Positions 40,466 through 49,850 of a stretch of DNA of 51,724 nt are shown one piece after another. Both the position numbers and the translations under genes were made by a program. The DNA is taken from contig CASERQ010000008.1 in NCBI GenBank assembly GCA_949290395.1, forward strand, positions 1 through 51,724, read 5' to 3'. Positions within the stretch are counted from its first letter, which is position 1. The number at the start of each line of letters is the position of its first letter. The DNA is from an uncultured bacterium. Its GTDB lineage: Bacteria > Bacillota_I > Bacilli_A > RFN20 > CAG-826. The notes beneath the pieces were generated by a model. It had not been told where the DNA came from. It worked only from the letters and a program-made list of their open reading frames with translations, and searched no databases.

Positions 40466-40669
40466 ATGAATAGTTGCTACTCTTCCAATAAAGTTATGGA
40501 AGAAATCAAGTGTCGCATTAAAGACAAGTTCAAAAACCAAGAAAACTTTGGCAAAGAACTTGGTGCAAGTCGTAAGACCGTGAGTCGAATCTTAAATCAT
40601 GGCACCGACATTGTCACTTTCTTCAGAATATGCAAGATACTTGGTATCGACGGAATATCAATTGACTGA
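40466..40669 (+). CDS. small XRE/Cro-type helix-turn-helix regulator
   Basis: A 67-residue protein: EEIKCRIKDKFKNQENFGKELGASRKTVSRILNHGTD is a Cro/C1 helix-turn-helix occupying nearly the whole protein. A strong GGAGGAGG eight bases upstream fixes the start at ATG 40466. Likely regulator of the downstream operon. Its last codons form the left arm of a terminator, and just past it TTTGTA-CC / GG-TACAAA (40680-40702) is a candidate operator. Confidence 0.8.
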   Translation: MNSCYSSNKVMEEIKCRIKDKFKNQENFGKELGASRKTVSRILNHGTDIVTFFRICKILGIDGISID

Positions 40670-40682
40670 TATTCCTTTTTTT
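40652..40682 (+). terminator. terminator embedded in the XRE gene end
   Basis: GGAATATCA / TGATATTCC, a perfect 9-bp stem with loop ATTGAC, followed by seven T. The stop codon TGA is the first part of the right arm. It separates the regulator gene from the structured leader and operon. Confidence 0.9.
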
Positions 40683-40702: not shown

Positions 40703-40786
40703 AACTGATTTTTCAATTGTTGTATGCTAAAACTACTAGAGTTAAACCAATTACTATAGTATATTTGGATTAATAATGACTCTTTG

Positions 40787-40989
40787 TGAGGTAAATACGC
40801 GAGAAATAAAACGTCGGAGCGTTAGTTAACTAATCAACGATTTATATTAAAAAACTGTGGCCTGAATTACCTCAAAACAGTCGAACTGTAAATATGAAAA
40901 TACAGGTACACAGCATAGTTAGATTATACCCGGGAAAGGAAAAGTTATCTAATCACTAAATCCGGGTACGATTAGATAATACGTACACT
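40787..40989 (+). ncRNA. structured leader or noncoding RNA candidate upstream of the island operon
   Basis: Within 203 bp with no gene there are several perfect pairings: TGAGGTAA (40787-40794) with TTACCTCA (40867-40874); ACAGT (40877-40881) with ACTGT (40885-40889); CTGTA (40886-40890) with TACAG (40901-40905); TTATCTAATC (40945-40954) with GATTAGATAA (40970-40979); and TACCCGG (40927-40933) with CCGGGTA (40962-40968), which lies in the loop of the previous stem, giving a possible H-type pseudoknot. Some pairs exclude each other, as in a switch. It ends ten bases before the first operon gene, which has no Shine-Dalgarno. It could be a riboswitch-like leader or a trans-acting RNA; no known class is recognised. 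The gap 40703-40786 holds nothing clear. Confidence 0.45.
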
Positions 40990-41391
40990 ATGAATGTTAA
41001 AGTTTATGCTTTAATCGAAAGACTTATAGTTTGTTGGGATGAAGTTAAGAATGCTGCTGTTTATCATGTTCATCTTCTTATTGGTGATTGGAATAGGCGC
41101 ATAGAAGTCATTAATGGCATTCAAACTGTAGTCGAAGATAAAAAGCAGAAAATGCAAGAAATAGCATTAATTCATGCTGATAGAAATTATAAATACTGTT
41201 CTTTTAAGAATTTAGCTAGAATCCATGTTACAGATACTTCAACAACATACGGGTGTATGAAAAAAGAAACTGGGCTAGAATACTATGTATTAGTAGAAGC
41301 AGAAGATAGACAACGAAATGTAATTGACTCTTCTGATAAGGTAAGTGGAAGAGTTTTATCGATGGATAACGGTTATGCTACACAGGGTTAA
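40990..41391 (+). CDS. FN3-like domain protein, first gene of the island operon
   Basis: A 133-residue soluble protein. It consists of one beta-sandwich-like domain: early LIVCWDEVKNAAVYHVHLL and late YYVLVEAEDRQRNVIDSSD. The pattern (Trp, then ALxYxVxL, then a Val-rich strand and AEDRxxNxI) recurs in the next two proteins and resembles fibronectin type III. Starts at ATG 40990 without ribosome-binding site, directly after the structured leader; the frame is closed upstream at 40957. Three bases before the next gene. No enzymatic motif. Confidence 0.7.
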   Translation: MNVKVYALIERLIVCWDEVKNAAVYHVHLLIGDWNRRIEVINGIQTVVEDKKQKMQEIALIHADRNYKYCSFKNLARIHVTDTSTTYGCMKKETGLEYYVLVEAEDRQRNVIDSSDKVSGRVLSMDNGYATQG

Positions 41392-41394
41392 TTT

Positions 41395-42396
41395 ATGAGT
41401 TGGGAAAAAGTAAACTTATTTGAATATCTTGGAAGACGGGTTTTTATGGATGAATACGGCTTTTGCCGTAGTGAATTGAACGGTGTTTTTATTAACGATA
41501 TTAATATATCTGAGTTGTACGCATATAACGATGAAAGTAAAAGATATGAAAGAATTAGATTTGGCAATAAAGGGAATTATGCCCAATCTTTAGCTGATCT
41601 ATTTGCGTTGGATATCGCGCAATGCAGCCTACGCTATTATAATTACCGTCACCACAATGAATATTTAACTAGTGATCAAGCCGTAAGCGTTGAATCCAAA
41701 ACTATCAAGGTTAATTTAAAAACTCATTACTATGTAGCTTTTAGATATAACGGTTGTAGTGGCGAACAACATGCCGATGATGTTATTGAACTTAGTTCAG
41801 CAAAAGATGTTAGCAAATATTTTTGCTGGTTTGAAGAAGGCGCTAGCACATCCTCATTCAAAATGGCTATTTTGCCTGAAGTCAAAGTAGACGACGAATT
41901 GTATCTTGTTGGCGTGGGCAAAGTTAAGGTATCGAACCTTGTTGAATATCCAAATAAAGATGATGTTGTCTGTGAAGCTATTGATGTAGAAGGCAAAAAA
42001 CAAAATATTAAAATGGAGTCTGAGGTTTTTTACTTACCATACAACAAAGCTGTCGACGAATATGAAGATGTTAATAAATCGCTTAATGAATTAAAATTGT
42101 CACCTTATGTCATACGCAGTAGGGAACAGAACCATATTTACAATATTTATTGGAACAAAATTGAGGAAGCAAGCTGCTATCATGTTATTCTCTACAAATA
42201 TATTGAGTTAAGAAACAGAAGACGTATTTTGAAAATTGTAGATTACGAAGTCGATAGAAACACTAGCTTTTTATCATTAGATAAACTAGTTGGTGCCAAC
42301 TTCATTTTTAAAGTCAAAGCCGAAGATAGAAGTGGAAACATAATTGCTGAATCAAGAGGAGCTATTGATGGCTCGCCATGTGATTTCAAAAAATAG
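41395..42396 (+). CDS. unknown N-terminal domain plus FN3-like C-terminal domain
   Basis: A 333-residue protein. Residues 1-230 are not recognised; they contain FNGKGNYAQSLADLF-like and a beta-rich part (KVDDELYLVGVGKVKVSNLVEY). Residues about 240-325 repeat the FN3-like domain: IYNIYWNKIEEASCYHVILY and FIFKVKAEDRSGNIIAES. No signal peptide, so it is cytosolic. It follows the previous gene by 3 bp and precedes the next by 9 bp with a GGAGG site. Confidence 0.7.
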   Translation: MSWEKVNLFEYLGRRVFMDEYGFCRSELNGVFINDINISELYAYNDESKRYERIRFGNKGNYAQSLADLFALDIAQCSLRYYNYRHHNEYLTSDQAVSVESKTIKVNLKTHYYVAFRYNGCSGEQHADDVIELSSAKDVSKYFCWFEEGASTSSFKMAILPEVKVDDELYLVGVGKVKVSNLVEYPNKDDVVCEAIDVEGKKQNIKMESEVFYLPYNKAVDEYEDVNKSLNELKLSPYVIRSREQNHIYNIYWNKIEEASCYHVILYKYIELRNRRRILKIVDYEVDRNTSFLSLDKLVGANFIFKVKAEDRSGNIIAESRGAIDGSPCDFKK

Positions 42397-42405
42397 GAGG
42401 TATTT

Positions 42406-42780
42406 ATGCCAGTAATTGATAAAACCGCAGCAGGAATCCGTCTTGAATTAGGTGCAGTTAAAACAGAACTTGAAAAGTTGAACTCTAAGGTTGATAAGTT
42501 ACTAAAGAGTGAAGAACCAGGTCAAGTTAGAACCGAATACTCAAATGGGTTTGAATTAAAAACTAAAGATAGAGTGGTTTGGTGGACTAAAGTAGATAAT
42601 GCTGCAAGGTATCGTCTCATTTTAAACTTCAATATTGATGAAGTTGGTTCTTTAGATTTAGATAGAGAAACTAGATTCTACGTGTTTGATAAAATGCCAA
42701 AAGGCATTTATATCTTAGTTAAAGTAATTGCTGAAGATAGAGAAGGAAACGAAATTGTTTCTGCATCGATTGGACTTTAG
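42406..42780 (+). CDS. coiled-coil plus FN3-like domain protein
   Basis: A 124-residue protein. A short heptad helix at the N-terminus (IRLELGAVKTELEKLNSKVDKLL) suggests oligomerisation; the rest is the third FN3-like domain (RVVWWTKVDNAARYRLIL, ILVKVIAEDREGNEIVSAS). Preceded by AGGAGG. The coiled coil could join several FN3-like modules into one assembly. Confidence 0.72.
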   Translation: MPVIDKTAAGIRLELGAVKTELEKLNSKVDKLLKSEEPGQVRTEYSNGFELKTKDRVVWWTKVDNAARYRLILNFNIDEVGSLDLDRETRFYVFDKMPKGIYILVKVIAEDREGNEIVSASIGL

Positions 42781-42791
42781 GAGGTTCGTTT

Positions 42792-44396
42792 ATGAGATAC
42801 TACGAAGAAGAATTAGAAATACTAATTAAAGCAGGCGCAAAAGTTGTTGAAGTTGCATCTTTTGAATGGGAAAGAGTGCACGGCTTTGCTAATTATGTCG
42901 CTGAAGACTTAGGAATCGATTGGTACTCTTGGAGCAGTGTTTCCGGATTGAAAGTTTGGGATGGGAAAGGATTTAAAGTAATTAATCCTGATTGCCAAAC
43001 TCTAGCGGCAGTTTTAGATTATTACATTCAAAATGAGAACGATATGCTTCTAGTATTAGAAGATTTCCACCCATATAGTGAAGCTCAAAACCCCATAAAT
43101 ATTAGATATTTAAGAGAAATGATGAGACCACAAAACTATTCTCCAAAATATAAGAAGGCCATCATTTTAAGTTCTCCTAACAAATTTGTTCCTGAAGAAT
43201 TATCTAAGGAACTTCCTGTAATTGAAGTTGAATTACCAGACAGACAAACTATTGAAGTTATCGCTAATAGTGTTGTTGAAGAATATAATGAATATTGTAT
43301 GGAAAGTGAAATCACTTCTAAACTTTTAGAATCTGCTTTAGGTTTGACCGTTATGGAAGCAAGATTAGCTTTTGCTAAAGCAATTATTACAAATAGAAAA
43401 TTAACTGAAGAAGAAATCCCGCTCATCATTAGCGAAAAAGAACAAATTATTAAGAAGAGCGGACTTCTCGAATATTTCCATCCAAAAGAATTCTTATCCA
43501 GCATTGGTGGTCTTGAGAATTTAAAGGAGTGGATTCATAGACGCGGTAACGCTTATAGTGACGAAGCCAAAGACTTTGGTTTGAATACTCCACGTGGTGT
43601 GTTGTTACTTGGCGTTCCGGGCTGTGGTAAATCATTAACCGCTAAAGCTATCGCTAATGAGTGGAAATTTCCATTATTAAGATTTGATTTAGGTAAAGTA
43701 TTTGGTGGCATCGTTGGTGAATCTGAAAGAAATATTAGATATGCTCTTGATGTTGCTAAAACCATTTCGCCATGTGTCCTTTGGATTGATGAAATTGAAA
43801 AAGGATTAAGCGGATCACAAAGCAGCGGCAGAACTGATGGTGGAACTAGTGCTCGTGTTTTTGGAACATTCTTAACTTGGATGCAAGAAAAGAAAGAGCC
43901 GGTCTTTGTTGTCGCTACAGCAAACGATATCAGCTCATTACCACCTGAGTTACTACGTAAAGGTAGATTCGATGAAATCTTCTTTGTTGATTTACCATCA
44001 GCAAAAGAAAGAGATAACATCTTTAGAATTCATCTCGGAAACAAAGGTAGAGATGCCGATAAACTTGGTTTAGATATGAACAAACTAGTTAAGTTAAGTG
44101 AAGGTCTCTCTGGCGCAGAAATTGAAGAAGTTGTTAATGAAGCATTATTCAATGCGTATGCAAACGGCCAAAAAGATTTAGAAATGAAGAATCTTGTCGA
44201 ATGTATTGAAGCAACTTCTCCATTATCTAGAACAATGGCCGAAACAATTGCTAACTTGAGAAAGTGGGCTGAGCAAAGAGCAAGATTGGCCAGCTCTGAA
44301 AAACCAGAAGAAGTTAAGGATCTCGGTGCTGATGTTCCAAGACTTCAACAAGAATATAAGAATCCATTTATACCAAAGAAACACGATGATAAGTAA
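42792..44396 (+). CDS. AAA+ ATPase, Ycf46-like
   Basis: A 534-residue cytosolic ATPase. The N-terminal 230 residues, with EWERVHGFANYVAEDLGIDW and a degenerate P-loop-free region (LLVLEDFHPY), match the layout of Ycf46-type proteins. The C-terminal AAA+ module is complete: Walker A GVPGCGKS near 274, Walker B LWIDEIEKG near 330, sensor 1 VVATAND near 375, arginine finger in RKGRFDE near 390, and a lid domain with LSGAEIEEVVNEA. It is likely a hexameric remodeller or unfoldase that feeds on the neighbouring proteins. It overlaps the next gene by 11 bp. Ycf46 genes in cyanobacteria lie close to Ycf35/DUF1257 and DUF2997 genes, as here. Confidence 0.9.
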   Translation: MRYYEEELEILIKAGAKVVEVASFEWERVHGFANYVAEDLGIDWYSWSSVSGLKVWDGKGFKVINPDCQTLAAVLDYYIQNENDMLLVLEDFHPYSEAQNPINIRYLREMMRPQNYSPKYKKAIILSSPNKFVPEELSKELPVIEVELPDRQTIEVIANSVVEEYNEYCMESEITSKLLESALGLTVMEARLAFAKAIITNRKLTEEEIPLIISEKEQIIKKSGLLEYFHPKEFLSSIGGLENLKEWIHRRGNAYSDEAKDFGLNTPRGVLLLGVPGCGKSLTAKAIANEWKFPLLRFDLGKVFGGIVGESERNIRYALDVAKTISPCVLWIDEIEKGLSGSQSSGRTDGGTSARVFGTFLTWMQEKKEPVFVVATANDISSLPPELLRKGRFDEIFFVDLPSAKERDNIFRIHLGNKGRDADKLGLDMNKLVKLSEGLSGAEIEEVVNEALFNAYANGQKDLEMKNLVECIEATSPLSRTMAETIANLRKWAEQRARLASSEKPEEVKDLGADVPRLQQEYKNPFIPKKHDDK

Positions 44397-46239
44397 TAAG
44401 CTCGTCACAATTGTCAAAGACAATCAGTTTGATAAGGGTTGGACACTTTTTTCTCTAACCTCTTTTGAGATTGAAAGAAACTGGGCATTTAAGAAAGCTG
44501 ATTTATCTAATGTCGTTAAATTAATTACATTTTCTACTCAAGTGAATTTAATCTTATGTGAGACCTGTCTTCCATCTAGGGTAATAAATGAATTGGAGTG
44601 GTCTAACAAATACATCAAAATTAACATAATTGCTAAAAGCAAAGAGGTGCTTGAAAGATATAAAAGATTCTCGTTCAACTCCTCCAAGGTTGACGAAACA
44701 GTGAACATCAACTACATAGGGATAACCGGTAAAAGCAATGGTTTTTATATGCTTGGCGATAATCTAAGTGAAATTGATGATTCAATTGAAAAAATATATT
44801 TTGGTTCAGCAAACGAAGTCGACAAATACTCCTCTTTGGAAAATGCAAAAACATTAATTGTTTGTAGCAACAGTAAGCATCAAGGTTTTAATAATCTTCT
44901 TTCTCTGGTTGCAAAATACGGATTGAGTTGTCGCTATGTTTTAAATAGCAAATATTTTGATAGAGATGCGTATGATTATGCAAAGAATAACAAACTTGAA
45001 TTATTTATCTCAGACTATGTTGATGATGTAGTGCTTGTACTCAATAAAGATAATTCAATTTGCAGGATGTCTGTTATAAATGATGGACATCTTGTTCTAT
45101 ATCCAATTGATAGAATAAGCAGCTATGTTAGTGAGCTTTATAAAAACTTGTTTTTAAAGGACACTATTGAAGTAGATAAGATTCCAGCAGATGTCTATTC
45201 TTGCTTCGGCGGAAAAAATAAAAAGCTAAATATCAACGATGCGTACGTTGTTAAAAAAGACGTCAGCATTAGTGAGATGTCTGATTTCGTAAATGAGAGA
45301 TTTGATAAGTCGATAGTTGAGAAGCATAACGATTATTCGAATAAAGCAAGAAGAACTCAGTATTTCTTTACATTAATTCCTCCTTTGTTTGATTCTTCTT
45401 ATTGTGAATCATTAATATATGCCTCAATACATGAACTACATTCGGAATGGTTATCTATTAACAAAATCAAGCTTGATAGAATTATTAAAGATTATCGCGA
45501 GTTCATGAATAAGGATGCTAAATTAATTGCGTTTATTTCTTATTCACAAACCCTTTCTAGCAAGCTTGAAAAAATGATTAGCGGCTGTTCATACTTTGGC
45601 TATTATTCTACTTTAGATGATGCTATAAAGACCTTTGAAGAATATCAAAACTATTTATTCGATGACTGCGCTTTCATATTTAATGAAGTTAATTCAGAGA
45701 GCTCTGGTACAAAGTTTGATAAATTCGATGCAGAAGTCGAAGGATACAGAAAAACGATCAAAGAAAAAGAAGTGCTCGTTTTCATGGGTACAGATGTTTT
45801 AAGTAACAAGAGAAGAATAGAAATTCTTAACAAGAAAATCGAGGACCTGTTAGCGTTAAAAGAAAAATTCGAAGGTAGTGCAGCAACTCGCTCAAGCAAG
45901 GAAGCTGAAACATTTGTTGCATATTGCAAAAAACTTATTGGTGGTGTTTCTTCTTCAAACGATGATTCAGATTCTATTGGCAAGATAGTTAACACCAGTG
46001 AGGGGTCAAAATTGGTTAAATTGAACAGTTTTGTATCTAACTATCTAAAACAAATTAGCGACTATTTAATTAAGTGCATCGCTTGTTTGAAAAGCTTAAG
46101 AGATATACATATTCCAGAAGATTATCCGGTGTTTGAAAAAGAGAACCAAAAATATATCGTTTTGAATGAATTGAGCGAGTTTGATTCCGCGAAAGAATTA
46201 TGCAAAGAATTCTCGCTAAAGTGCTTAGCAAGGAGGTAG
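44386..46239 (+). CDS. large hypothetical protein of the island operon
   Basis: A 617-residue soluble protein, not recognised. It has alternating alpha/beta segments in the first 250 residues (KLVTIVKDNQFDKGWTLFSL; EKIYFGSANEVDKY; TLIVCSNSK), a mixed middle part, and a helical, coiled-coil-prone part around residues 465-540 (NKKIEDLLALKEKF). No catalytic motif or membrane segment is visible. The frame is open to 44326, but ATG 44386, inside the end of the AAA+ gene, is the natural start in a coupled arrangement. Three bases separate it from the next gene. Confidence 0.72.
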   Translation: MISNKLVTIVKDNQFDKGWTLFSLTSFEIERNWAFKKADLSNVVKLITFSTQVNLILCETCLPSRVINELEWSNKYIKINIIAKSKEVLERYKRFSFNSSKVDETVNINYIGITGKSNGFYMLGDNLSEIDDSIEKIYFGSANEVDKYSSLENAKTLIVCSNSKHQGFNNLLSLVAKYGLSCRYVLNSKYFDRDAYDYAKNNKLELFISDYVDDVVLVLNKDNSICRMSVINDGHLVLYPIDRISSYVSELYKNLFLKDTIEVDKIPADVYSCFGGKNKKLNINDAYVVKKDVSISEMSDFVNERFDKSIVEKHNDYSNKARRTQYFFTLIPPLFDSSYCESLIYASIHELHSEWLSINKIKLDRIIKDYREFMNKDAKLIAFISYSQTLSSKLEKMISGCSYFGYYSTLDDAIKTFEEYQNYLFDDCAFIFNEVNSESSGTKFDKFDAEVEGYRKTIKEKEVLVFMGTDVLSNKRRIEILNKKIEDLLALKEKFEGSAATRSSKEAETFVAYCKKLIGGVSSSNDDSDSIGKIVNTSEGSKLVKLNSFVSNYLKQISDYLIKCIACLKSLRDIHIPEDYPVFEKENQKYIVLNELSEFDSAKELCKEFSLKCLARR

Positions 46240-46242
46240 GGC

Positions 46243-46980
46243 ATGAGCTGTGAAAGAACTATTAAAATTTTTGAAACCGTTGAAGTTAAAATCGACACAT
46301 GCAATAAAAAAGAACTAGAAGAGCTTGAAAAAAGTATAGTTTCTGCAATTAATCAAAAGTTAGCAAAACTTAATATTCTAATTAGAAATTGTGATATTTA
46401 TTCCAACGGAAACTGCATTATTGTGCATGATAGATTTAATATCTGCTCTAGTTTAAAAGAAGTGGCGGAAGCATTCGGCTTAGAATGCGAATTAGTCAAT
46501 TTTTCCTTAAGAGGGAAAACTTATTTAATTGCCGATCAACTTCTACGTGTATTAAAACAAATAGATGTCCAGTTTAACTTTGGCTCCAATGTTGCCAATA
46601 AAGAACTTAATGGTGAAATAGAAGACATAATGGGAGAATTTGGAATTACCAAAATCGATGCAGGCATTTTAGAAATGGTTAGAAACATCAAAAAGAATGG
46701 TGTTTATACAACTACAAAAACAAGAGAAGTGTTTCAAACATTTTATGATGGTAGATTAATTGACCACTCTGAAAGCGGTTGGTCTACTGATGAAGGTGCG
46801 ATTAGAGATAGACTTCTAAATATGTCTAAGGAAGCCGAAAACGTTGTTAAGAAAACCAATGCGTATTTACGAGATGGCACAACAAAGCTGATTTATGCAA
46901 GAGCAAGACAAATGGGATATGCTGTCCAAGAAGTTAAAAAAGGAACTCAAACCCAATTAGTTTTAGTGAGGTACGAATAA
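46243..46980 (+). CDS. DUF1257/Ycf35-like protein
   Basis: A 245-residue protein. The C-terminal LIYARARQMGYAVQEVKKGTQ followed by LVLVRYE matches the end of DUF1257 (Ycf35) proteins, where a Tyr-Ala helix is followed by GYxV and a final strand. The middle segment, GKTYLIADQLLRVLKQID, fits the domain as well. The N-terminal 90 residues are beta-alpha with a cluster of Cys residues (five in the first 70), which might bind metal. The identification is supported by the next gene, a DUF2997 protein, its usual neighbour. One-base overlap with that gene. Confidence 0.68.
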   Translation: MSCERTIKIFETVEVKIDTCNKKELEELEKSIVSAINQKLAKLNILIRNCDIYSNGNCIIVHDRFNICSSLKEVAEAFGLECELVNFSLRGKTYLIADQLLRVLKQIDVQFNFGSNVANKELNGEIEDIMGEFGITKIDAGILEMVRNIKKNGVYTTTKTREVFQTFYDGRLIDHSESGWSTDEGAIRDRLLNMSKEAENVVKKTNAYLRDGTTKLIYARARQMGYAVQEVKKGTQTQLVLVRYE

Positions 46981-47180
46981 TGCCAGAGATGAAAATTGTT
47001 GTAAATATCAGTGATACCGGCGAAATCGATGCCGAAACCTTTAACATGGAAGGCACTGAGTGTCTTGAAGAATTGGATAAGTTATTAAAGGATTTGGCTC
47101 TTGAATCTGAAACTACAAAGAAACCAGAGTTTTTTAAGAACTCTAAAAAGGTTGACAACACAATCAAAGTTAAGAAATGA
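46980..47180 (+). CDS. DUF2997 protein
   Basis: A 66-residue protein: MKIVVNISDTGEIDAETFNM, then GTECLEELDKLLKDL and KKPEFF. This is the DUF2997 pattern (strand, turn, strand, Gly-x-x-Cys helix, then a Lys-Pro-Glu-(Tyr/Phe) tail). The conserved Cys29 is retained. Overlaps the radical-SAM gene by 4 bp (ATGA). In other bacteria DUF2997 occurs beside DUF1257 and often a ferredoxin or Fe-S protein. Confidence 0.8.
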   Translation: MPEMKIVVNISDTGEIDAETFNMEGTECLEELDKLLKDLALESETTKKPEFFKNSKKVDNTIKVKK

Positions 47181-47749
47181 TTAACATTCAAAGAATGATG
47201 CTTGTTGATAATGAGCATCTTTATGGTCCAGGCAAAAGGCTACTTACATACTTAAAAGGCTGTTCTATTCATTGCGAGGGATGTATTAATCCACATCTAT
47301 GGTCTTTTGATGGTGGGACACCTCTATCATCCGATGACATCTTAAAGATTCTTTTAGATAATAATCTAGATGGTGTTACTCTTCATGGCGGTGAACCGCT
47401 AGATCAAGCGGATGAACTACTGAAGATTGTTAAAGATATTAAAGCAAATGGTAAAACAGTCATCTTATTTACAGGGTATATAAAGAAAGAACTAACCGGT
47501 AATAGATTAAAGATATGGAACTTAGCAGATATAGTAGTGGCTGGAAGATTCCAACTTAAAAAAAGAAATGTCTATCTCCAATTCCGCGGTTCAACAAATC
47601 AAAGGGTATATACCCACAAAGGAAAATATAAGAACTATAAACTTAAGGATGGATATACAACAGCTATGTTCACAATTGATGAAAATGGTGACATGGATGT
47701 TAATGGTTTCTTAACTGAAGATATAGCTGAATTAATGAAAAATAAATAG
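47177..47749 (+). CDS. radical-SAM activase-like 4Fe-4S protein
   Basis: A 190-residue short radical-SAM protein. The cluster motif is CSIHCEGC (Cys29, Cys33, Cys36; CX3CX2C), preceded by YGPGKRLLTYLKG; the SAM motif HGGEPLDQ lies at 70-76. This is the NrdG/PflA-like single-cluster architecture used to make glycyl radicals in partner enzymes. No NrdD or other glycyl-radical enzyme is in the island, and no RVxGY-like motif is seen in its proteins. It is the last gene of the operon; its stop codon is one base from a severed ABC transporter gene. Confidence 0.88.
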   Translation: MINIQRMMLVDNEHLYGPGKRLLTYLKGCSIHCEGCINPHLWSFDGGTPLSSDDILKILLDNNLDGVTLHGGEPLDQADELLKIVKDIKANGKTVILFTGYIKKELTGNRLKIWNLADIVVAGRFQLKKRNVYLQFRGSTNQRVYTHKGKYKNYKLKDGYTTAMFTIDENGDMDVNGFLTEDIAELMKNK

Positions 47750-48437: not shown

Positions 48438-48443
48438 TTGAAC

Positions 48444-49850
48444 ATGATTAAAATGAACTTGATTGATGTTGTTAATGATCTAATTAAAAGAAGTGATGAA
48501 GAAGAATGGTTTGAATTTAAGGTAAATTGGTTTGAAGAGGAAAAAATAGGTCAATATATATCTGCATTATCTAATTCTGCATCCATTTTGGGAAAGGAAT
48601 ATAGTTATTTAGTTTGGGGGATTGATGATAAAAAACATGATGTTATAGGAACTAACATAAATCCATTTTGTAGTTATAAAAATGAACCATTTCAAGAATA
48701 CTTGGCAAGGAATCTTAAGCCTTCCATAGCTTTTCAGTTTGATGAAATTTTTATAAATAACGAAAGATTAATAGTTTTAACTATTCCCTGTGCGAAAAAC
48801 GTACCGACATCTTTCAATAAAATACGATATTCAAGAATTGGTTCAAGCATTGCTTCATTAGAAAAATATCCAGAAAGAGAAGGTTTACTCTGGAATGTAT
48901 TAATCAAAGGTTACCCTACAATGATTAATACCGAATCGCCAATACAAGATTTAACTTTTTCACAGTTAAAAAATTATTATTTAGGCAGAAATCTAATATT
49001 TAATGATGAAACATTTAAAATAAATATGCACTTGCTGTGTGATAATGGAAAATATAACATGTTGGCGTGCTTTTTAGCCGACAATGGTTCTATTCCAGTT
49101 AGAGTATCAATTTTTTCGGGACTAGATAAATCAAAAAAACTGTTTTCTGTAAAAGAATTTGGAAATCAAAGTTTAGTATCGGTTATAGACAGAATAATTG
49201 ATTATGCCGATTCCATTAATATGACTAAATCTATAGAAGATATCCATAGTGGAACAAGAACAGATGTCCCTCTTTTTAATCAAGATTGTTTTAATGAGGC
49301 TGTAAAAAATGCTTTTATTCACAATAATTGGCTAAGAAGAGTTGCTCCTATGATTACTTTTTTTGAAGACAGAATTGAAATAACCTCTTTTTCGTCCCTT
49401 GCTCCAAAACAAACCATTGAAGGCTTTTACAAGGGATACAGCATACCAGTTAATGAAGATTTATCTTCCATTTTTCTTGCAACTCATTTAAGTGAAAGAA
49501 CGGGTAAGGGAAATCCTTTGATTGTTTCTAATTACGGAAGAAAAGCTTTTAAAATTAACGAGGATTCTATAATAGTTACTATCCCTTATAACTGGATTCG
49601 TTCATTTAAAGATTTGGTAGATAATGCGGTAGATAAATTGGCAGATAAATTAAACAAAACAGAATTAAAAATACTGTATGCAATTAAAGAAAACCCTAAA
49701 ATGTCACAAATTGGAATAGCAAACATAACGAATACTGGTAAAACCACAGTTCAAAATACCATTGTTAAGTTAAAACACTTATCTTTGATTAAACGTATTG
49801 GCTCAAACAAAACGGGCTATTGGCAAATTATTGACAATAATGATTATTAA
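48444..49850 (+). CDS. AlbA/Schlafen-like ATP-binding transcriptional regulator
   Basis: A 468-residue protein of the family with an N-terminal AlbA_2/Schlafen domain (EEWFEFKVNWFEEEKIGQYISALSNSA), then a GHKL-type ATP-binding region (DCFNEAVKNAFIHNNW; GRGNPLI-like segment TGKGNPLIVS), and a C-terminal winged helix (KNPKMSQIGIANITNTGKTTVQ). The combination is common in regulators near accessory and defence genes. It starts at ATG 48444 (the frame opens at TTG 48438); the transcript is probably leaderless. Regulated genes unknown. Confidence 0.82.
   Translation: MIKMNLIDVVNDLIKRSDEEEWFEFKVNWFEEEKIGQYISALSNSASILGKEYSYLVWGIDDKKHDVIGTNINPFCSYKNEPFQEYLARNLKPSIAFQFDEIFINNERLIVLTIPCAKNVPTSFNKIRYSRIGSSIASLEKYPEREGLLWNVLIKGYPTMINTESPIQDLTFSQLKNYYLGRNLIFNDETFKINMHLLCDNGKYNMLACFLADNGSIPVRVSIFSGLDKSKKLFSVKEFGNQSLVSVIDRIIDYADSINMTKSIEDIHSGTRTDVPLFNQDCFNEAVKNAFIHNNWLRRVAPMITFFEDRIEITSFSSLAPKQTIEGFYKGYSIPVNEDLSSIFLATHLSERTGKGNPLIVSNYGRKAFKINEDSIIVTIPYNWIRSFKDLVDNAVDKLADKLNKTELKILYAIKENPKMSQIGIANITNTGKTTVQNTIVKLKHLSLIKRIGSNKTGYWQIIDNNDY

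What the first reader, a model, noticed from the sequence alone, without database searches (positions are those of the whole stretch)
40787..40989. Candidate structured RNA with alternative pairings and a pseudoknot
Five perfect stems, two of them mutually exclusive, and a 7-bp pairing into the loop of a 10-bp hairpin occur in 203 bp just before the operon. The preceding regulator gene has its own terminator, so this RNA would begin a separate transcript. The first operon ATG has no ribosome-binding site; AAAGGA lies inside the structured part. It may be a new leader element or a functional RNA component.
Basis: partly seen in the sequence, partly recalled or inferred. Interest (0 to 1): 0.75.

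Follow-up and report, generated by a model that had tools for sequence, protein, structure and literature searches.

The report
Transposon end carrying spare ribosome site
The 'leader RNA' is the leftover end of an RNA-guided jumping gene (IS110 family) that cuts in between a gene's ribosome-binding site and its start codon; that end carries a knotted RNA with a new ribosome-binding site, which would let the interrupted gene go on being translated.

Summary
The structures are real, but they are not one leader RNA. Window 40792-40984 is a transposase-less remnant of an IS110-family element inserted between the Shine-Dalgarno (SD) sequence and ATG of the operon's first gene. A relative's orthologous operon is empty there, the genome holds a second 97% copy, and full copies carry an IS110 recombinase. 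Two opposite-strand parts are superimposed. (2) Plus strand, the last ~57 nt: an H-type pseudoknot holding AGAAAGGAG, complementary to the 16S tail, with strong two-sided covariation; a start codon follows in 47 of 51 copies. It looks like a 'split' ribosome-binding site as in T4 genes 25/38 (PMC3014915), resupplying the SD that the insertion displaced. All 14 SD-targeting IS110s examined carry it and 0 of 5 others do. Copies precede essential-type genes (infB, rbgA, cmk), and element-free versions lead lipoprotein genes. Start-site targeting is known (IS900); a transposon-borne structured replacement SD was not found in the papers searched. Function is inferred, not assayed.

The parts
40786..40791 (+). 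Host Shine-Dalgarno GTGAGG, the target half left on the far side of the insertion
   Evidence: Orthologous empty site TTGTGAGGGAACACTATG in L141
40792..40984 (+). IS110-family left-end remnant; core-like GT at both borders (40791-40792 and 40983-40984); recombinase gene and right end deleted
   Evidence: 97% second copy at G000:C2:309485-309649; 96% identical copy next to a recombinase fragment in L009/L041; full elements L045, L046, L049
40923..40928 (-). -10 box TATAAT for the bridge RNA
   Evidence: Promoter scan, 10 of 12 matches; present in all subtypes
40793..40915 (-). Bridge-RNA gene remnant (5' end about 40915, inferred from the -10 box; 3' part truncated)
   Evidence: Wobble pairs of its stem fall on the minus strand only, 5 versus 0; loop architecture and guides as in IS621
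40890..40902 (-). Left target guide TATTTTCATATTT (contains CAT, the complement of ATG)
   Evidence: Guides match their own start-codon flanks better than others': 1 of 20,000 permutations, n = 31
40865..40876 (-). Right target guide TTTGAGGTAATT (SD-like)
   Evidence: Guides match their own SD flanks: 0 of 50,000 permutations, n = 15; 8 of 50,000 without the non-SD element
40820..40839 (-). Putative donor-binding loop CGTTGATTAGTTAACTAACG
   Evidence: Contains TAGTTAAC, identical to the right-end sequence of L054; other half not identified
40927..40933 (+). Pseudoknot arm A (TACCCGG)
   Evidence: Pairs with 40962-40968; all 6 A pairs counted show changes on both sides
40934..40940 (+). Element-borne Shine-Dalgarno GAAAGGA in loop 1 (AGAAAGGAG in other subtypes)
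   Evidence: Present between A and B in nearly all copies and in the 14 SD-targeting IS110s examined
40944..40954 (+). Pseudoknot arm B (GTTATCTAATC)
   Evidence: Pairs with 40970-40980; 7 of 8 B pairs with changes on both sides, 4 of 11 on alignment A1
40962..40968 (+). Pseudoknot arm A' (CCGGGTA)
40970..40980 (+). Pseudoknot arm B' (GATTAGATAAT), ending 3 nt before the element's end
40990..41391 (+). First gene of the operon (133 aa, no Pfam match), the gene whose SD and ATG were separated

Best explanation
Window 40792-40984 is the immobile remnant of an IS110-family insertion sequence. Its bridge RNA (minus strand) guided insertion between the SD and ATG of the downstream gene; the recombinase gene and right end were later lost. 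Because its target is a translation start, the element's left end carries in mRNA sense a replacement ribosome-binding site: an extended SD held in loop 1 of an H-type pseudoknot. Helix B:B' folds away about 37 nt, so that the SD, 49 nt from the ATG linearly, comes to roughly 12 nt from it, as in the 'split' RBS of T4 genes 25 and 38. The interrupted gene therefore stays translated, and the left end persists as a leader after the rest is lost. Shown by sequence: insertion, empty site, guide-target matches, pseudoknot covariation, sense polarity, position before start codons. Inferred: translation from the element's SD, the role of stem A:A', and the mechanism of deletion.
For: Second copy and family-wide copies with the same 3' end. 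Full elements with PF01548 + PF02371 recombinase. Empty orthologous site. Start codon at a fixed 7-14 nt position in 46 of 51 copies, a 47th lying beyond a tandem second end. Guide-flank permutations. Covariation in both stems, 60 two-sided cells versus 13.9 shuffled. Wobbles G-U on plus 12 versus 2. SD-targeting IS110s 14/14 with, non-SD-targeting 0/5. Left ends directly before infB, rbgA/ylqF, cmk, ribBA, and the module before plsX. L178 lost the loop SD but has AAAGGAG next to its ATG. Split RBS precedent in T4.
Against: No expression data. Subtype C copies (L021, L022, L027) have a weaker SD (AGAAAGTAAA, AGAAAGAAA). Bridging needs only B:B', so conserved A:A' has no proven job and could even restrain the SD. 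Module pieces for the joint covariation count were placed in register by hand, and the plus/minus wobble numbers are small. L073 is the only close relative with a plainly different target; the other non-SD elements are more distant, so the 14 versus 5 contrast partly follows phylogeny.
Confidence: 0.82

Rival explanations
1. The pseudoknot is a true regulatory switch (riboswitch or protein-bound leader) of host genes, captured by IS110 ends; stem A:A' locks or frees the SD in response to a signal.
For: Element-free modules conserved before lipoprotein and secreted-protein genes in several genera (L097, L099-L101, L179, L184-L186, L190, L195-L200). The strictly kept A:A' stem is not needed for simple bridging.
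Against: Genes behind the copies are unrelated (IF-2, CMP kinase, 1-phosphofructokinase, permease), loop 2 and loop 3 are not conserved as a ligand pocket would be, and no Rfam family matches.
Confidence: 0.25
2. The end structure acts as DNA or in the transposition cycle (donor hairpin, junction promoter), and the AAAGGA and its place before ATGs are by-products of the target choice.
For: B' overlaps the donor end and a possible -10 (TATTAT) for a junction promoter with the right end's TTGACT (inference).
Against: Wobbles are G-U in mRNA sense; element-free leaders keep the module although they cannot transpose; the loop is the complement of the 16S tail; IS110s with other targets lack it.
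Confidence: 0.12
3. A stable leader or small RNA proper to this operon, as first proposed.
For: It lies between a terminator and the first gene.
Against: The orthologous operon lacks it; copies stand before unrelated genes in 50 of 273 genomes of the order; the 40793-40915 part has bridge-RNA architecture on the other strand.
Confidence: 0.02

Closest known systems
IS110-family insertion sequences with bridge RNA (IS621, PMC11208160; seekRNA, PMC11187229)
   Same: DEDD recombinase, long 5' non-coding end with an RNA whose internal loop has a left guide equal to the top strand and a right guide complementary to it; guides track targets
   Different: Gene-sense strand of the end carries an SD pseudoknot; the window copy has no recombinase or right end
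IS900 of Mycobacterium avium subsp. paratuberculosis (PMC8141618; Doran 1997 cited there)
   Same: IS110 family; inserts between start codon and SD (motif CATGNNNNNNTCTCCTT), recombinase gene antisense to the target gene
   Different: Reported for IS900 is a hed ORF using the host signals; a replacement SD pseudoknot was not among the passages read. IS900 ends were not examined here
Split ribosome-binding sites of phage T4 genes 25 and 38 (PMC3014915)
   Same: Structure between SD and AUG brings a distant SD to working distance (27 to 11 nt, 22 to 5 nt)
   Different: Simple hairpins fixed at one gene; here a pseudoknot, carried by a transposon, before many genes, 49 to about 12 nt
H-type pseudoknots in translational leaders (T4 gene 32, E. 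coli rpsO; PMC3014915)
   Same: Pseudoknot near a translation start
   Different: Those bind a repressor protein; none is known here

Membership tests
IS110 family (IS110 group) | DEDD_Tnp_IS110 + Transposase_20 recombinase | tested here: met
   Full relatives L045, L046, L049: PF01548 E about 1e-34, PF02371 E about 1e-19 to 1e-24
IS110 family (IS110 group) | Recombinase present in the window copy or its genome | tested here: not met
   None in the window; none in the 96%-complete genome: a remnant, not an active element
IS110 family (IS110 group) | Bridge RNA upstream of the recombinase with target-binding loop matching the insertion site | tested here: met
   Guides versus flanks; architecture as
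IS110 family (IS110 group) | Donor-binding loop matching both element ends | tested here: inconclusive
   Right-end half identical over 8 nt (TAGTTAAC); left-end half not identified
IS900-like start-site targeting | Insertion between SD and start codon in fixed orientation | tested here: met
   46 of 51 ends have a start codon at the fixed distance (47th behind a tandem end), SD at the other flank, empty orthologue
Split (structure-bridged) ribosome-binding site | Strong SD too far from AUG, with a conserved helix between them | tested here: met
   SD 49 nt from ATG; B:B' covariation
Split (structure-bridged) ribosome-binding site | Mutations in the helix reduce translation | not testable with these tools
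   Needs a reporter assay
Known Rfam families | Covariance-model match | tested here: not met
   Gathering scan of the window gave tRNAs only; evalue scan of L045, L046, L097 gave nothing

The most novel reading that the evidence does not exclude
RNA-guided transposons have evolved ends that replace exactly the expression signal their guide displaces: an SD pseudoknot in the SD-targeting clade, and, in a second IS110 clade of the same order, what looks like a -10 box placed just before the ATG of apparently leaderless genes. Such ends spare the host, survive as scars and become ordinary gene leaders.
Probability: 0.5. Interest if true: 0.85.

Novelty: new variant of a known kind. Interest (0 to 1): 0.72.

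Why it matters
It links target choice by a guide RNA with repair of the damage done at the target: the element selects translation starts and brings a folded ribosome-binding site along. If confirmed, it explains how IS110 elements can sit between SD and ATG of essential genes, gives a portable, context-insulated RBS of about 57 nt, and offers a route by which transposon ends turn into gene leaders. It also warns that covarying 'leader RNAs' in raw sequence can be overlapping parts on opposite strands.

Tried and rejected
Rfam: no family. BLAST of the element in phage and plasmid records: nothing. Single-sequence folding: only weak support and misleading, since it mixes two modules on opposite strands. 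Alternative TTAGAT:B pairing: not conserved. PADLOC: the operon's AAA protein resembles IetA only in the ATPase part, which does not bear on the element. Orthologues of the second own copy's gene were too distant (about 43% identity at best) to show an empty site. A lone repeated leader was the first idea; it was dropped when divergent IS110 starts appeared next to full copies. An origin of the truncated copies by recombinase action (core-like GT at both borders in window, L002, L011, L024) fits but is not proven.

Full report
1. Observation. The region 40787-40989 holds three perfect inverted repeats of 7 bp or more, including a 10-bp one (1 of 300 shuffles has one as long), and a 7-bp pairing into that hairpin's loop. 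As a single fold it is unremarkable (z = -1.63). Rfam finds nothing there. The regulator's terminator (40652-40675) is present.

2. It is repeated and inserted. The genome holds a second copy, 97% identical over 165 bp, between two unrelated genes of another operon. Related copies occur in 5 of 26 genomes of the genus and 32 of 224 of the family, often at contig ends as repeats do. All share the 3' end ..ATAATACG. In 47 of 51 a start codon of an unrelated gene follows in the same orientation: in 46 of them at a fixed place 7-14 nt from a point in the end, and in the 47th (L033) behind a tandem second end. The orthologous operon in genome G059 reads TTGTGAGGGAACACTATGAATGTT where the window reads TTTGTGAGG[T...ACGTA]CACTATGAATGTT. 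So the whole finding is an insertion between SD and ATG, and the promoter region upstream is shared with the empty orthologue.

3. It is an IS110 end. Full copies continue upstream into a divergent 390-aa recombinase with PF01548 and PF02371. The window's genome has no IS110 recombinase. In recombinase orientation the end carries a TATAAT box, then a stem with a symmetrical internal loop of about 12 + 12 nt. One strand holds CAT, the other GGAG-like sequence. This is the IS621 arrangement: left guide equal to the top strand, right guide complementary to it (PMC11208160). Guides fit their own flanks better than those of other copies: left side 1 of 20,000 permutations (n = 31); right side 0 of 50,000 (n = 15), 8 of 50,000 without the non-SD element, 235 of 50,000 when the two truncated copies are also left out. 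The stem's wobble pairs exist only on the minus strand (5 versus 0). IS900, of the same family, is known to insert between start codon and SD (PMC8141618).

4. The end also carries a module in the opposite sense. Parsing the copies gave one layout: A, loop 1 with AGAAAGGAG, B, A', B', then 3 nt to the end of the element. Loop 1 is the complement of the usual Bacilli 16S tail CCUCCUUUCU (general knowledge; the tail was not read in this genome). Shuffled sequences do not give such a pseudoknot (0 of 200 for nine of ten copies, 2 of 200 for the tenth). On 20 distinct versions 13 of 14 pairs change on both sides, 98% of cells pair, and the covariation score is 0.715 against 0.24 shuffled and at most 0.21 slid (pieces set in register by hand). 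On an automatic alignment helix B alone gives 0.371 against 0.223, with no slid version above 0.113. Wobbles are G-U in mRNA sense, 12 against 2. A covariance model found about 100 matches in 50 of 273 genomes of the order and two genomes beyond it, one with a further two-stem variant CCCAAG/CTTGGG + ATTATTTAATT/AATTAAATAAT. Matches near the E-value limit (for example L212) are probably chance.

5. Function. In the window the SD ends 49 nt before the ATG; with B:B' closed the path is 3 + 9 nt plus the helix. T4 genes 25 and 38 use the same trick with hairpins (PMC3014915). Elements whose guide targets an SD carry the module (14 of 14); elements with other targets do not (0 of 5; Fisher p = 9e-5), L073 being the closest control (guide TTTTTGTCAATTT, target TTGTCAAT). 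Ends sit directly before genes for IF-2 (L208), YlqF (L106), CMP kinase (L026) and RibBA (L017), and the module before plsX (L181), where loss of translation would hardly be tolerated. L178 lost the loop SD and has AAAGGAG next to its ATG. Modules without other element sequence stand before lipoprotein and secreted-protein genes and are conserved across species (L097, L099-L101, L179, L184-L186, L190, L193-L200): either domesticated scars or the source from which IS110 took the module. The direction is open.

6. Truncated copies. Window, L002, L011 and L024 join the SD flank directly to internal element sequence, with a core-like GT at both borders. This suggests recombinase-made deletions, but is unproven. 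All keep the pseudoknot.

7. Verdict. Identity as an IS110 remnant is near certain. The replacement-RBS role is well supported by comparison but untested. Regulation through A:A' remains possible.

Noticed in passing
L116, L120, L127, L129, L130, L132, L136 (also L137, L138): A second IS110 clade, recombinase in the same sense as the target gene: in copies where the downstream sequence is held (e.g. L127, L130, L132, L136) the right end ..TTGATAATTGTAGGT abuts the ATG (RimM, a LytTR-type regulator, an SDR by eye) and several left flanks end near a -10-like box. It looks like insertion into leaderless start regions with a replacement -10.
   Followed up: partly
window 40990-47749: Operon of small proteins without Pfam matches, an AAA+ ATPase (IetA-like in its ATPase part), a further large protein and a 4Fe-4S radical-SAM activase-like protein; the first gene has an orthologue (71%) in only one other genome of the family.
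   Followed up: partly
L007 5489-10267: Run of six paralogous secreted proteins beside a signal-peptidase-like gene; the second copy of the element sits between two of them.
   Followed up: no
L099-L101, L179, L197-L200: In one genus the pseudoknot before lipoprotein genes is preceded by another conserved hairpin (CATCTTAA..TTAAGATG), so the whole leader may be one larger RNA.
   Followed up: no
L187, L188, L206 (G154): Variant with an extended loop 1 (GTAATGAAAGGAGATG), at least three copies in one genome.
   Followed up: no
window 48438-49850: Schlafen/AlbA_2 protein with a weak PADLOC hit (PDC-S50) downstream of the operon.
   Followed up: no
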